Source of the DNA: Bondarzewia mesenterica
Lineage: Eukaryota; Basidiomycota; Agaricomycetes; Russulales; Bondarzewiaceae
Reading direction: 5' to 3'
DNA: 64,000 nt
NCBI GenBank assembly: GCA_004802705.1
Contig: SGPL01000041.1
Span: 39,365 to 103,364 of the forward strand
This document shows positions 5,288 to 55,509 of the stretch, piece by piece. The number at the start of each line of letters is the position of its first letter. The first letter of the stretch is position 1. Both the position numbers and the translations under genes were made by a program. The notes under the pieces are model-generated. The model worked only from the letters and a program-made list of their open reading frames with translations. It did not search any database and was not told the DNA's origin.

Positions 5288-8200
5288 ATGGAGATACCTA
5301 CGGAGCGGAATTCTGGTGAGATATGCTACTATTCTTTATTAGAACATTTTGTTTTATACTTTTTCTTTAACAGCTCATAAATACTCTGGGGATAGTATCC
5401 CACCCGGTCCTACTCCTATAGCAGAGCAGATCAAGCCGCAGGTGCCGGAGCTCCTCCCTTTTTCTCCTACGAATATGGATAGCATTTTGGAGGTAGGTGA
5501 AGGCTCATAATAAGTGAATAACCCTAAATCCATATATACAGGAGAAAGAACTACATTTGATGCGTTTACACGCATCCTTGCCGCAGGAGGTAAAAGGAGG
5601 TCCATCTAGTTCGCAGGCTCTAATTCAACCTCAAGATAAAGAGAGTATGTCTAAACCACCCCAGAAGAAGCCACGGTTATACCATCCCTCCTTTGTGGAA
5701 CGCTCAGAATTGGTCCCAACTTCATCATTGGAAGGGCCCGCACGTCACAGACGTTCGCATAGGGCATATGTACTTATTCCATCCAAAAAGCCCTTCAAGA
5801 AAGCTCATGATAATTCATTTTCCCTCGCTTCTGGTCTTTTACCTCCTGGCTCTTCCCCAAATGCGCAATCTGGACCGTTTACTCCCTCTCATTCTCTTGG
5901 ATTATCTCATCCTTCCAACGTTCAAGCTTTGATGTTACGCTCAAGGCCTGAAAAAGAGCGAATGGATCCTAAGCCTTTAGATGACGAGGATATAGATCAA
6001 AATGACTTCTCTGGACGTCCTCATTCCTGGTCGCTCTCTTCGCCTAATAGTCTTCCAAGAATATCGCCTATTCTAGATCAGGATAACAATCACTACGATG
6101 ACGTTGATGTCCTTTCAACTCTCCCTCATCCAATTTCTCCTTTACCTTCTTCTAGCTCGTCTCATCAGTTAGACATTCAAACTCAAAAGCTACGCATAAG
6201 GCCTAATAGACTGGAGCTAATGGACTTTAAATCTTTGGGGGACGAATCTACTCATGACGATGCGGACGATGCTGATGAGGACGAACGAAATCCATCATTC
6301 TCTAAAAAGTCATCCACCAATGATTTCGATTATTCTTTAGAGGATACACTCGACTCTTATCAGGATTTACATTTCCCTCAGACGCGCAAAGAACTTCGAG
6401 CTCTCCTTCCAGATTTACAGGCCTCATCACAAGCATCACAAGTCGATACCGGGCCTTTGGACAAATTTATAAACGACCATCAGTGCGGCAGCCATAACAC
6501 TATTTGTACCATCCTATCGTTCTTCAGCATGCAGTATCAACCGGTGCTGGGCGCTATAGTCTGCCTTGTCTGTATGGGTGGATGCATAATCCCTTTGGCT
6601 CATTGGTCAAGGCACGTTCTTAAACGGCACAACTTCTCCTGTCCTAAAGCCAAGCGCCATGCTTTGCGAGAAATGGTGCAACATATCGGGCAGAGCTATG
6701 GAATTGATCTAGATCAAACTGCTAGTGATCTTCATCTTCCAGCTCAACTGAACGAGCCTATATCTTGTCGAGATAATCTTACGTCTAATAGGAGCCAATC
6801 GATCCTCTTTCGCTATCATTGTCCATTCGTGGATGCTCAAGGCCAACGTTGCTCCTTTTGGGCAGCTATCAACACTTCCAAGGGATGCGACGAAGCAGAG
6901 CTCAAGAAACACCTTAAAAAGTTGCATCCTAAATTGAAGGCGACCACCTATCAAGGTCAATGGACTCAGGGGCTTGCCGTCATCCGCGATACTAAAAGCA
7001 TACACAAACATATCTTCATTCTTCCGGACGATTTCAAACTACAGGATGCCTCCTCTAAGCGAGCTACTGGAGTTAAATCTAGAGACGCTGCTCCTACCGC
7101 GACTTGGATGACAGAGATACGTTTTGATACTATCTTGGACAATTTAGGCCCAAAAGCATCTATTCAACGGCTACAATGGCTAGTAACTCTGCCATCCCTA
7201 TATCTTGCCACGTCCAGTAACAATAAAGTCGTTCGATGGATGGAAAGGGGTCTCTTATTACTTCATAAAGAGACTCACTTATATTTGAAAGGCGCGTCCC
7301 AGTTTAGGACCAATCAAAATCAATTAGTTTCTACGGAACTCTATCAGTACGTCTCTTTAGTTTCATTATTAAATTGAATTATAAAGGCTAATGATTGATA
7401 GAGCTGCATTGTCCAATATGACAAACCTAAAGAACAGCACTTTGTATGGCTACCGAGAAGCTCTGTCTCGAACAACCTCCATGATGCTTCGCTTATTATA
7501 TCTTCATGAAATTAAATCTCGCGAAGGGCTAGGAAATCTGGAACTTATCGGCAGCGAGGAGCAAGCATCTACGGCGGCTTCCTTATATGCACTTTTTCAG
7601 GATTATCATGGCCATCCACCAATTCTAGAGCTACGACCCCTTATGCATCAATTTTACCAAGCTCTCTTGCAGACGAAAGACTTGGAGGAGTCATTTATAG
7701 CATGTCCCACGGACATGATGCTTTTTCTATGCTCATTGAGCAAAGGTACTAGCCGATTTGTTTCAGCCAGACGGTTGCGCGATTTGTGCTATCGTTTGGG
7801 TTATTGCTTTCGTGCTATTACGATCCATACAATCCGATTAACACTGGAGGGCCACAATTCCTACGTGGAATACAAACCGTCACTGGATACGCTGGCTACT
7901 AGCTGCCTTTCGGAGGAGAATGACTCGGATGATGACTATGAAGAGGGAAGTGATGACAGTGGAAATAGCGATATTGAAGAAGGGAATAGGAGCGAGGCTG
8001 AAGAGAAAAGTCCAGTAGCGGCAAAGGTCAAAAGGGTTAGCTCAGGCAAGCATTACAATTTTATTCAATAGTTCTTTGCTAACGAGTAAGGCAGCCTTTG
8101 AACTTGGATTTATGCGAATTGCAAAGCCTACATTGGATGATTCAAGTTCTGTCGAAGCATCAACTCGTAAAGCTCTTAGGTAAGTTTATTTAAACTTTCA

Positions 8201-51977: not shown

Positions 51978-53828
51978 ATGGAGCGTGCGTTCTCCTCCTG
52001 GCCACAGCCCGCAGACGATCCTCCAAAGCAGCTTGAACAACCCAAGGACAAGCCTAAGAAGCCCCGACACCGTCACACTGCTGTTCAATTANCAGCTCTT
52101 AATGAGTTGTACGATAAAAATGAGCATCCGGCTCTTGACGAGCGCCAGGCTTTGGCAGAGCGTCTTGGAATGTGCGTCCTACATCTGTTTTTNCCATTCT
52201 CTTTTATCGTTCGGTCACTGACTTCGCAAATGCTTTTTCTTTGACTTTTTCTATTTTCGATGTCCTCCACAGGGAGACAAAGACGGTCAATGCTTGGTTC
52301 CAGAATAAACGAGCTTCTACCAAAAAAAGGCATCGGGGTGTTGCCGCCCCTGCTCCTTCTTACGAGCTTCCGCATATTTCTTCCTTGCTAGCATCCACTT
52401 CCTCGTCATTATCTACTCCCTCTGCTTTGAACCACATCGACGACTTTGCCGAGCCCGAGTTGCTCCCGACATTGACATTGCCTAGATTGCAGAAACCTGT
52501 ATCCCGCTCATCATCTCACCTCCCGAAACTCGAACAGTCGCACCAACAGCAATCTGCATTTTATGCGGGCAATCCCGAACATCGTCATGTATATGAAAGT
52601 ACACCTGCTGAGCTACCTGCCCGCCCCCGCATGCGCCAGCGTCCCACTGCACAGCAGACGGATGAGCTCAGAAAATTCTACCAGAATATCCCTCATCCAA
52701 GCAAGGAAGAGCGGGAGGAATTGGGCGCACGGATTGGGATGTATGTATTTGACTTTCCAACGCTAAATCTAGCACAGCCTCATCATAATTCATAGGCGCT
52801 ACCAGAGCATAACAAATTGGTTCCAAAACCAGCGCAGTCTTGCAAAGAAGCGGCAGGAAGAAGAGGAAGCTGATGCAGCTCTTCCCAGAGTACCTCCGTC
52901 AGCGTCCGACCACTCTCCAAGGGCCTACCCGTCGTACCCACCTGCGTCGGAACATCCCTCGCTTCCCCCGGCTTCCACACATCCTTCATTAACCGCGATC
53001 ATAAATAGACATACTCGGTCACCTAGCGCGCCGCCCTCGAATGCATCTGCATCGTCGCGAGCATCGCCGTATCGAAATTTGATCCCATCACAGCGTCTTC
53101 GCCGCACACGGCCAGAGCCCTATCAGCTCGAAGCCCTCCAAAAGTTGTTTAACAGCACTTCGAACCCATCTATCGAAGAGCGCTCTGCCTTGGCGCTTGA
53201 AGTCGGAATGTGAGTCCTAGTCTCATGATCCTTTTTTAATATTCGGCGTTTAGATGGTGACATGCTCACGCTGACCCGTTTGTCTTACCTGTGTAGGGAC
53301 TTGACGAAGGTCACCAATTGGTTTCGCAACCTCCGACAGACGGCCCGCAAGCGCGCAAAGAAGCCGGGAGAAGATGGTGATACCGACAGTGTGCAATTGA
53401 ACTCTGCTTCAGTGTCTCGCGCAGTGACGCCGTCCTTCACGTCCTCGTCTTCATCCGGCACACGCGAGCATGATCGTGATCATGGGATGGAAACCGAGAA
53501 CGACGAGCTGGAGCCTGTGCCGATGCACACGGATGAGGACGAGTATGGTCCTCCCGAGCCCATGCGTGGCCCTACTCATTCTGATGGTGGCAGCGACGAT
53601 GAGTATCAGGAGGCTGTTACCCCTTCCCCTTCCCCACCGCCACAGCACAATTTCGCTCCGACGTCCTTCATTCCGCCGCCGCCACCGCATCGCGCGGCAG
53701 TTGGCGTGAATATGGGTTCCGATACGGTCACGTATTCCGAGCTCGAGAAGCTCCCGGGACGGATATCAGGTGTCAAAGTCGAAGACGCTTTGTTATTATT
53801 AAGTTTTCATCATCATGTTGTGCATTAA
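51978..53828 (+). CDS. Three-homeodomain transcription factor
   Basis: Exons 51978-52171, 52273-52740, 52796-53209 and 53297-53828 give 535 residues. Three homeodomains follow one another. HD1 (about residues 25-83) has the helix 3 motif NAWFQNKRASTKKR, HD2 (about 205-260) has TNWFQNQRSLAKKR, and HD3 (about 340-400) has TNWFRNLRQTARKR. Each has the conserved WF.N.R core that contacts DNA. Ser/Pro-rich linkers separate them. The C-terminal third is acidic and proline-rich (DEDEYGPPEP), as in activation domains. In each homeodomain an intron cuts the codon of the methionine between GM and helix 3, in the same phase (AT/G). So the three units arose by duplication of one exon pair. Two Ns in the CDS region lie at 52092 (unknown residue in HD1) and 52193 (in the first intron). 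Targets are unknown. Confidence 0.88.
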
Positions 53829-54658: not shown

Positions 54659-55509
54659 ATGGATTGGACAGATTTCGTTAAACTTGATGATCTCTTAGCT
54701 TTTCCGCTGCCCTTCGATTTGACTCTTACTCCGCCGCCGGACGAATTCGACAAAGATGTCGATGAGGCGTTCGAAGCTGAGCCCGAGCTCTCTGTCGTCC
54801 CCGAAAAATTCGGCCACAGGTCTTCTGAGCATAGGGTCGGTTTGGATAGTGCAATCCCCTCGTATCCTGCGCGCGCGGACAGCGCATCTGCCGCATCAGA
54901 AGATGACCTTGGATCTTCCCTTTGGTCCCCAGGTTCATACATTTCCTCGAATACGTCAGTGTCTCTGGGCGCAGAGTCTCAGGGCAATTCATCTATCAAT
55001 TCTTTTAAAATGACACCATATCCTTATCTGCATTTATCGCAATGCCAACCTGCCGCGGCGCCTTTCACCCACTCGCAACCCGCGCTCATTACAAGTGCGG
55101 AATTTGGGAACAATCATCAGGATGTGGGCACAGTACCGGTGACAGCGTCGTGGCAGGATATTTATCCTCCATCGTCCGGATCAGGAACGCGAACTCGCTG
55201 TGCTGCCGAAGGCGCGAAGCCAGACTATGTCTGTGGTAGATGCCATAGTGAGTCTCTTTCTCATCCCACGCGTACTTACTGAGCATTTTCTGTTCAGCTT
55301 TCCATTCCTCTCGCTTGTGGAATTTAAAGGAACACATGAAACTTCATGATCCCGATTATGTACCTCCCTTCCCCTGCGACGTACCAGGGTGCAGGAAACG
55401 GTTCACACGCAAATCGGACATGACGAGGCATATGAACGGAAAAAATACCCATGGCCCTCCAGTTCGTCGACGAAGTGGTCGCAATGCTCGGGTCGAAAAG
55501 CCTGTCTAA
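54659..55509 (+). CDS. C2H2 zinc-finger transcription factor
   Basis: Exons 54659-55247 and 55298-55509 give 266 residues. The first 190 are acidic and Ser/Pro-rich, as in a transactivation region. Two zinc fingers lie at the C-terminus: CGRCHTFHSSRLWNLKEHMK with LH, interrupted by the intron after the second Cys, and CDVPGCRKRFTRKSDMTRHM ending in H (C-X4-C, H-X5-6-H). A basic tail (VRRRSGRNARVEK) follows. The layout is that of small fungal C2H2 regulators. It lies 830 bp from the homeodomain gene in the same direction. No partner or target is evident. Confidence 0.8.

What the first reader, a model, noticed from the sequence alone, without database searches (positions are those of the whole stretch)
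51978..53828. Three tandem homeodomains with introns at the same codon
The protein has three complete homeodomains, and each is cut by an intron at the same place and phase (AT/G of the Met before helix 3). Such triple arrays are well known in animals (ZFHX, CUX-like), but fungal homeodomain proteins mostly have one. The shared intron position shows internal duplication of one gene unit. Linked DNA contacts could give a long composite target site.
Basis: partly seen in the sequence, partly recalled or inferred. Interest (0 to 1): 0.75.

Follow-up and report, generated by a model that had tools for sequence, protein, structure and literature searches.

The report
Mushroom protein with three homeodomains
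This fungal gene encodes a regulator protein with three different DNA-binding homeodomains, and the same gene turns out to be shared by many mushroom-forming fungi, where its job still has to be found.

Summary
One gene (exons 51978-52171, 52273-52740, 52796-53209, 53297-53828, +) encodes a 535-aa protein with three complete homeodomains, each cut by an intron inside codon 40 (AT|G Met, phase 2). It is no oddity: by a loose scan 163 of 172 proteins listed by three homology searches have three homeodomains (strict scan: 112 of the first 120). Named sources span many Agaricomycete orders, including Coprinopsis cinerea and Schizophyllum commune; best match Heterobasidion irregulare (70% identity). 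Coatomer-gamma and pantothenate kinase genes lie upstream; three misjoined models of other species show one or the other beside the gene. HD1, HD2 and HD3 group by position across species, so the array is old. Recognition residues W48-F49-N51-R53 are nearly always kept; residues 47/50/54 differ between the three. The shared intron does not by itself prove internal duplication: two single-homeodomain genes of this genome have it too, so it is older than the array. Domain trees favour one origin only moderately. Most likely a transcription factor with three non-equivalent domains on long disordered linkers and a conserved C-terminal helix. Role untested; Hom2 is excluded, Hom1 is open. I found no paper describing the three-domain family.

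The parts
51978..52171 (+). exon 1 (start codon, N-terminal part of HD1)
   Evidence: spliced frame; full-length match to P0001
52172..52272 (+). intron 1, inside codon 40 of HD1 (AT|G), phase 2
52273..52740 (+). exon 2 (helix 3 of HD1, linker, first part of HD2)
52741..52795 (+). intron 2, inside codon 40 of HD2 (AT|G), phase 2
52796..53209 (+). exon 3 (helix 3 of HD2, linker, first part of HD3)
53210..53296 (+). intron 3, inside codon 40 of HD3 (AT|G), phase 2
53297..53828 (+). exon 4 (helix 3 of HD3, acidic and Ser/Pro-rich tail, C-terminal motif, stop)
52056..52333 (+). homeodomain 1 (aa 27-85, interrupted by intron 1); A47 Q50 N51 A54
52628..52856 (+). homeodomain 2 (aa 184-241, interrupted by intron 2); N47 Q50 N51 S54
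53097..53357 (+). homeodomain 3 (aa 322-379, interrupted by intron 3); N47 R50 N51 Q54
53760..53825 (+). conserved C-terminal motif (about GVKVEDALLLLSFHHHVVH); predicted helix in P0001
   Evidence: a loose pattern for it occurs in 162 of 172 proteins; mean identity 0.67 over 52 chosen sequences; helix 494-507 of P0001
48744..50550 (+). neighbour: Fumble/pantothenate kinase gene; only place in this genome with a Fumble match (start and stop read by eye)
   Evidence: joined to the three-homeodomain gene in models P0137 and P0162
44991..48341 (+). neighbour: coatomer gamma subunit gene; only place in this genome with a match of its platform domain (start and stop read by eye)
   Evidence: joined to the homeodomain gene in model P0144

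Best explanation
A nuclear transcription factor of a family conserved across many Agaricomycetes. Three homeodomains, each competent for DNA binding but with different recognition residues, hang on long disordered linkers; an acidic Ser/Pro-rich tail ends in a conserved short helix (VEDALLLLSF) that probably docks a partner. Shown by computation: three intact domains, grouping by position across species, the codon-40 introns here, conservation far above the linkers, predicted fold of an orthologue. Inferred: nuclear action, that each domain binds DNA, that they recognise clustered AT-rich half-sites with flexible spacing (avidity) rather than one rigid long site, and that the targets are genes of multicellular or fruiting development. 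Origin (inferred): a homeodomain unit that already had the codon-40 intron was duplicated twice within one gene before Hymenochaetales, Russulales, Polyporales and Agaricales separated, perhaps before Gomphales; single-domain relatives with the same intron persist in the genome.
For: Three PF00046 matches. W48/F49/N51/R53 kept in 159 of 159 HD1, 160 of 163 HD2 and 160 of 160 HD3 scored in 164 three-domain proteins, window protein included; 10 of the 492 domains could not be scored. Residues 47/50/54 differ: HD1 A-Q-A or S-Q-A in 155 of 159 (A-A-S in 4), HD2 N-Q-S in 143 of 163, HD3 N-R-Q in 159 of 160. Identity to P0001 over 52 chosen sequences is 0.83/0.69/0.76 in the domains, 0.30-0.33 in the two linkers and 0.67 in the C-terminal motif. 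HD1, HD2, HD3 each group by position in 22 species (unstarred support 82-89 / 87-99). Array domains on one side of a branch against five single domains (91/81, 90% of bootstraps), array plus the two single genes with the same intron on one side of another (93/79). 12 of the 13 proteins flagged among 171 are broken by annotation at residues 38-42, in HD1, HD2 or HD3, as expected if the introns are there too. AlphaFold2 of P0001: three three-helix domains mostly over pLDDT 90, linkers mostly under 50, pTM 0.31; best PDB matches are tandem homeodomains of DUX4.
Against: No expression, binding or knockout data were available. Array domains are no more alike (0.38-0.42) than some are to single genes (L005 with HD3 0.48, L008 and L002 with HD1 0.43), so common origin rests on trees of 55 columns without starred support. 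In the first tree the long TALE row C508 attached on the HD3 side while the six single domains sat with HD1 and HD2; with C508 counted the array is not one clade there, and I left C508 and L001 out. HD2 has lost N51 or R53 in 3 of 163 cases (P0125, P0128, P0135). 8 of 172 proteins show only two domains even by the loose scan; I take these for fragments or misannotation, untested.
Confidence: 0.7

Rival explanations
1. Fusion: the array was assembled from neighbouring single-homeodomain genes of one intron class rather than by duplication inside one gene.
For: Single genes with the same codon-40 phase-2 intron exist in the genome. HD3 is on average closer to L005 (0.48) than to HD1 or HD2 (0.38, 0.42). 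In one search the single domains sit with HD1 and HD2 and a TALE outgroup with HD3.
Against: Without the TALE row and L001 the array domains fall on one side of a branch (91/81, 90% of bootstraps). The TALE row has an extreme branch (about 10) and a hand-typed junction.
Confidence: 0.22
2. It is the orthologue of Schizophyllum commune Hom1, a regulator of mushroom tissue formation and vegetative growth, so its function is already partly known.
For: S. commune has a three-homeodomain protein of this family (P0170). A 109-species study dates Hom1 to the ancestor of Agaricales and Gomphales (PMC8893723, passages); the deepest named hit here is Ramaria, Gomphales (P0171). Hom2 is excluded: the C. 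cinerea family member is CC1G_06624, Hom2 is CC1G_01962 (PMC4624876, passage), and P0170 has one RRxS motif where Hom2 has four (PMC5428507, passage).
Against: No Hom1 sequence could be compared; S. commune has other homeodomain genes. A paper on Auricularia reports a hom1 homologue there (best A. delicata hit E 3e-20; PMC3953639, passage), which sits badly with the late origin unless that hit is only a shared domain. The age match is only a lead.
Confidence: 0.38
3. The exons belong to separate genes or transcripts and the three-domain protein is an artefact of joining.
For: No RNA evidence for this genome.
Against: 163 of 172 database proteins have three domains in one chain by the loose scan; splice sites are canonical and in frame. 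P0049, from a source without organism name, has HD1 and HD2 uninterrupted and then reads on past codon 40 of HD3, which fits an incompletely spliced RNA (inference).
Confidence: 0.02
4. Parallel insertion: introns were gained independently at the same favoured site in each homeodomain.
For: Other shared sites exist in this genome (codon 48 in both L002 and L003).
Against: The shared positions follow kinship: L002 and L003 are 75% identical, and the codon-40 units lie together against L002, L003 and L004 (93/79). The exon ends (AAT|, GAT|) are not the AG|G of a proto-splice site (recalled).
Confidence: 0.05

Closest known systems
Homeobox-domain-containing proteins of Agaricomycetes (e.g. HETIRDRAFT_58809 of Heterobasidion irregulare, CC1G_06624 of Coprinopsis cinerea)
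   Same: Same three domains in the same order and same C-terminal motif; an upstream neighbour is shared in three misjoined models of other species.
   Different: Nothing of substance seen; I found no paper that describes the family (searches named in Tried and rejected).
ZFHX/ATBF1 proteins of animals
   Same: Several homeodomains in one chain.
   Different: No C2H2 zinc fingers in this protein; 535 aa instead of several thousand (recalled); fungal. I read the likeness as convergent.
DUX4 double homeodomain (animals)
   Same: Best PDB match by sequence and by fold search; tandem homeodomains bound to DNA.
   Different: Two domains on a short linker (recalled), against three on linkers of 41-126 residues or more.
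Hom1 of Schizophyllum commune
   Same: Homeodomain regulator of mushrooms whose reported age matches this family (PMC8893723, passages).
   Different: Identity not established.
Mating-type homeodomain proteins of basidiomycetes
   Same: Homeodomain regulators probably in the same genome (two Homeobox_KN matches 3.2 kb apart on C271; that this is the mating-type locus is my reading).
   Different: One homeodomain per protein and a different homeodomain class (recalled).

Membership tests
Homeodomain (PF00046) | profile match above the curated cut-off for each domain | tested here: met
   63.2, 58.8 and 56.9 bits against 22.9
Homeodomain (PF00046) | recognition-helix residues W48, F49, N51, R53 | tested here: met
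   all three domains of the window protein; 159/159, 160/163 and 160/160 of the family domains scored
Agaricomycete three-homeodomain family | three homeodomains, each grouping with the same position of other species | tested here: met
   (unstarred support 82-89 / 87-99)
Agaricomycete three-homeodomain family | C-terminal VEDALLLLSF motif | tested here: met
   present in the window protein; loose pattern in 162 of 172 proteins
Agaricomycete three-homeodomain family | coatomer gamma / Fumble genes next door | tested here: inconclusive
   both in this window; only three misjoined models of other species show one of them
ZFHX | C2H2 zinc fingers beside the homeodomains | tested here: not met
   no zinc finger in the Pfam scan
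CUX | CUT repeats | tested here: not met
   no CUT domain in the Pfam scan
TALE (Homeobox_KN) | Homeobox_KN as best profile; three extra residues after helix 1 | tested here: not met
   PF00046 outscores PF05920 in each domain, though PF05920 also passes its cut-off in HD2 (31.4 against 24 bits); standard spacing to W48
Hom1 (S. commune) | sequence orthology to XP_003030056 | not testable with these tools
   no Hom1 sequence held; reported age and presence in S. commune agree
Hom2 (S. commune) | orthology to CC1G_01962; four RRxS sites | tested here: not met
   C. cinerea member is CC1G_06624; one RRxS in P0170 and none in the window protein

The most novel reading that the evidence does not exclude
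An undescribed regulator class of mushroom-forming fungi: one gene, conserved from Gomphales to Agaricales and, as far as the capped searches saw, not found in other fungi, in which three homeodomains of different specificity (mostly A/S-Q-A, N-Q-S, N-R-Q at 47/50/54) have been kept together since before these orders arose and jointly read flexible composite sites for multicellular development; comparable in architecture to animal ZFHX proteins but arisen independently.
Probability: 0.4. Interest if true: 0.55.

Novelty: new member of a known kind. Interest (0 to 1): 0.36.

Why it matters
A three-homeodomain factor conserved over mushroom-forming orders is a ready candidate for a developmental regulator, and each domain's specificity can be measured directly. 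In this genome intron positions mark homeodomain lineages: codon 40 in the array and two relatives, codon 48, codon 52 or between 46 and 47 in the others looked at. If the gene proves to be Hom1, a known mushroom phenotype gets a molecular mechanism.

Tried and rejected
Considered and dropped: CUX or ZFHX membership (no CUT or zinc-finger domains); TALE class; Hom2; separate transcripts.

Literature: ten searches. 'three homeodomains' + 'basidiomycete' gave one paper, on Marchantia (listing). 'three homeobox domains' + 'fungi', 'multiple homeodomains' + 'homeodomain' + 'Basidiomycota' and 'CC1G_06624' gave none. 'triple homeodomain', 'tandem homeodomains' and 'multi-homeodomain' had no occurrence in the 15 papers listed of 158. 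'257652', my recalled and unconfirmed Hom1 number, gave one unrelated paper. Searches looked for mushroom homeodomain papers. 'Not described' rests on these searches of open-licence papers only. Of the papers I saw passages, and in PMC4624876 also one section, never a whole text. Passages that added nothing on Hom1's identity: PMC8097960, PMC3998117, PMC4082614, PMC6529522, PMC7567395, PMC8805025, PMC5769442, PMC3360767. Three works likely to bear on Hom1 (looked up by DOI from memory) are not held.

Limits: the first two protein searches list 120 of 267 and 120 of 305 hits, so the spread over fungi is a lower bound. The loose scan (E 1e-2, over 25 profile positions) counts broken domains as domains; the strict scan gave 112 of 120 and 124 of 135. 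DNA of relatives was not available, so their introns were judged only from broken protein models, and looked only for loss of W48 or a shift between P26 and W48, not for breaks elsewhere. The identity table was out of register and was replaced. Structure and conservation used 52 of the 172 proteins, chosen by me. Orders of named species are from general knowledge.

Full report
What is there. The window lies in a fungal assembly of 33.1 Mb in 844 contigs (contig C346). The gene has four exons and three introns (51978-53828, +) and encodes 535 residues. Three homeodomains lie at residues 27-85, 184-241 and 322-379. Each is split by a GT-AG intron inside codon 40 in phase 2.

How common. One search listed the best 120 of 267 homologues; 112 of the 120 have three homeodomains by a strict scan. 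Searches added 15 and 37 proteins; of the 172 in all, 163 have three by a looser scan that also counts broken domains, 8 have two, and one (P0172, an unnamed zinc-finger protein with four) I take not to be of this family. The closest is Heterobasidion irregulare at 70% identity over the whole length. Named sources cover Russulales, Polyporales, Agaricales, Boletales, Hymenochaetales, Gloeophyllales and, with two domains recognised, Gomphales (Ramaria, P0171) (orders from general knowledge). The list includes C. cinerea CC1G_06624 and S. commune P0170. So the gene is a widespread family member, not a local invention.

Neighbourhood. Upstream on the same strand lie a coatomer gamma gene and a pantothenate kinase (Fumble) gene, each the only place with a match of its domain in this genome. 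Three gene models in other species join one of these to the homeodomain gene, wrongly in my reading: Fumble in Psilocybe cyanescens (P0137) and Butyriboletus (P0162), coatomer gamma in Cyclocybe (P0144). This points to gene order kept between orders, though only three models show it.

The introns. In this genome the single-homeodomain genes on C278 (L005; AT|G) and C353 (L008; GT|G) have an intron at the same codon and phase, whereas L002 and L003 are cut in codon 48, L001 in codon 52 and L004 between codons 46 and 47 (codon numbers are my reading). The position is therefore older than the array and cannot alone prove internal duplication. In other species the introns could be seen only indirectly: of 171 proteins looked at, 13 were flagged, and 12 of these are broken at residues 38-42 of HD1, HD2 or HD3 (for example Collybiopsis P0124 in HD2 and HD3, Cyathus P0099 in HD1, Ramaria P0171 in HD3); the thirteenth, P0125, has substitutions instead. 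This fits introns at codon 40 in all three domains across orders.

Origin of the array. With 22 species, HD1, HD2 and HD3 each form one group (support 89/87, 82/99, 85/97, none starred), so the three positions were fixed before these species' orders split. In that tree the six single domains of this genome form one starred group (97/82) lying with HD1 and HD2, and the very long TALE row C508 attaches on the HD3 side, so with C508 counted the array is not one clade. Without C508 and L001, and with 12 species, the array falls on one side of a branch against five single domains (91/81), and array plus L005 and L008 on one side of another (93/79). These supports are moderate, from 55 columns, and the trees are unrooted. 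Raw identity does not decide: array domains are 0.38-0.42 alike, L005 and HD3 0.48. Duplication of one codon-40 unit is the best reading; fusion of close relatives remains possible.

How it probably works. The recognition helices are kept (159 of 159, 160 of 163 and 160 of 160 scored domains with W48, F49, N51, R53; 10 of 492 not scorable) and differ at 47, 50 and 54. The domains are conserved at 0.83, 0.69 and 0.76 against 0.30-0.33 for the linkers. The model of the Heterobasidion protein has three confident three-helix domains, disordered linkers and a C-terminal helix; the fold search returns homeodomains, first the tandem domains of DUX4. From this I infer three independent DNA readers that raise affinity for clustered sites without fixed spacing, and a C-terminal docking helix. 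A similar ending is visible by eye in the single-domain L008 product. Developmental targets are inferred from what other mushroom homeodomain factors do (Hom1, Hom2; PMC5428507, abstract and passages).

Is the function known. Hom2 is excluded. Hom1 is possible: its reported age, the ancestor of Agaricales and Gomphales (PMC8893723, passages), agrees with the deepest named hit here, but no Hom1 sequence could be compared, and a reported Auricularia homologue of hom1 (PMC3953639, passage) speaks mildly against. PMC9386254 (passages) reports nine homeobox factors in Ganoderma, one (GL25472) binding promoters with TCAATTT and TTAATTC boxes; whether that is this gene is unknown.

Verdict. Observation confirmed; interpretation partly right. 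The gene belongs to a widespread Agaricomycete family for which I found no description. Interest moderate.

Noticed in passing
window 54659-55509 (+): A C2H2 zinc-finger gene (CDVPGCRKRFTRKSDMTRHM...) follows downstream; read by eye, not searched.
   Followed up: no
window 51976, 52092, 52193: The only three N bases in 64 kb, all within about 220 b at the 5' end of this gene; single Ns also occur in L004, L013/L016 and L015. Probably ambiguous base calls.
   Followed up: partly
G000:C271:4196-4309 and 7450-7563: Two Homeobox_KN matches 3.2 kb apart, perhaps paired mating-type homeodomain genes.
   Followed up: no
L002 (C214) and L003 (C446): Two single-homeodomain genes on different contigs, 75% identical in the domain, both cut by an intron in codon 48 phase 2; the L003 frame stops soon after the domain, so it may be a decayed copy.
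   Followed up: partly
P0125, P0128, P0135 (family members): HD2 has lost N51 or R53 in these three (Mucidula, Amanita muscaria, Mycena), hinting at relaxed DNA binding of the middle domain.
   Followed up: no
P0172 (unnamed 7.4-kb contig, 1271 aa): Four homeodomains plus C2H2 zinc fingers, ZFHX-like, organism unknown.
   Followed up: no
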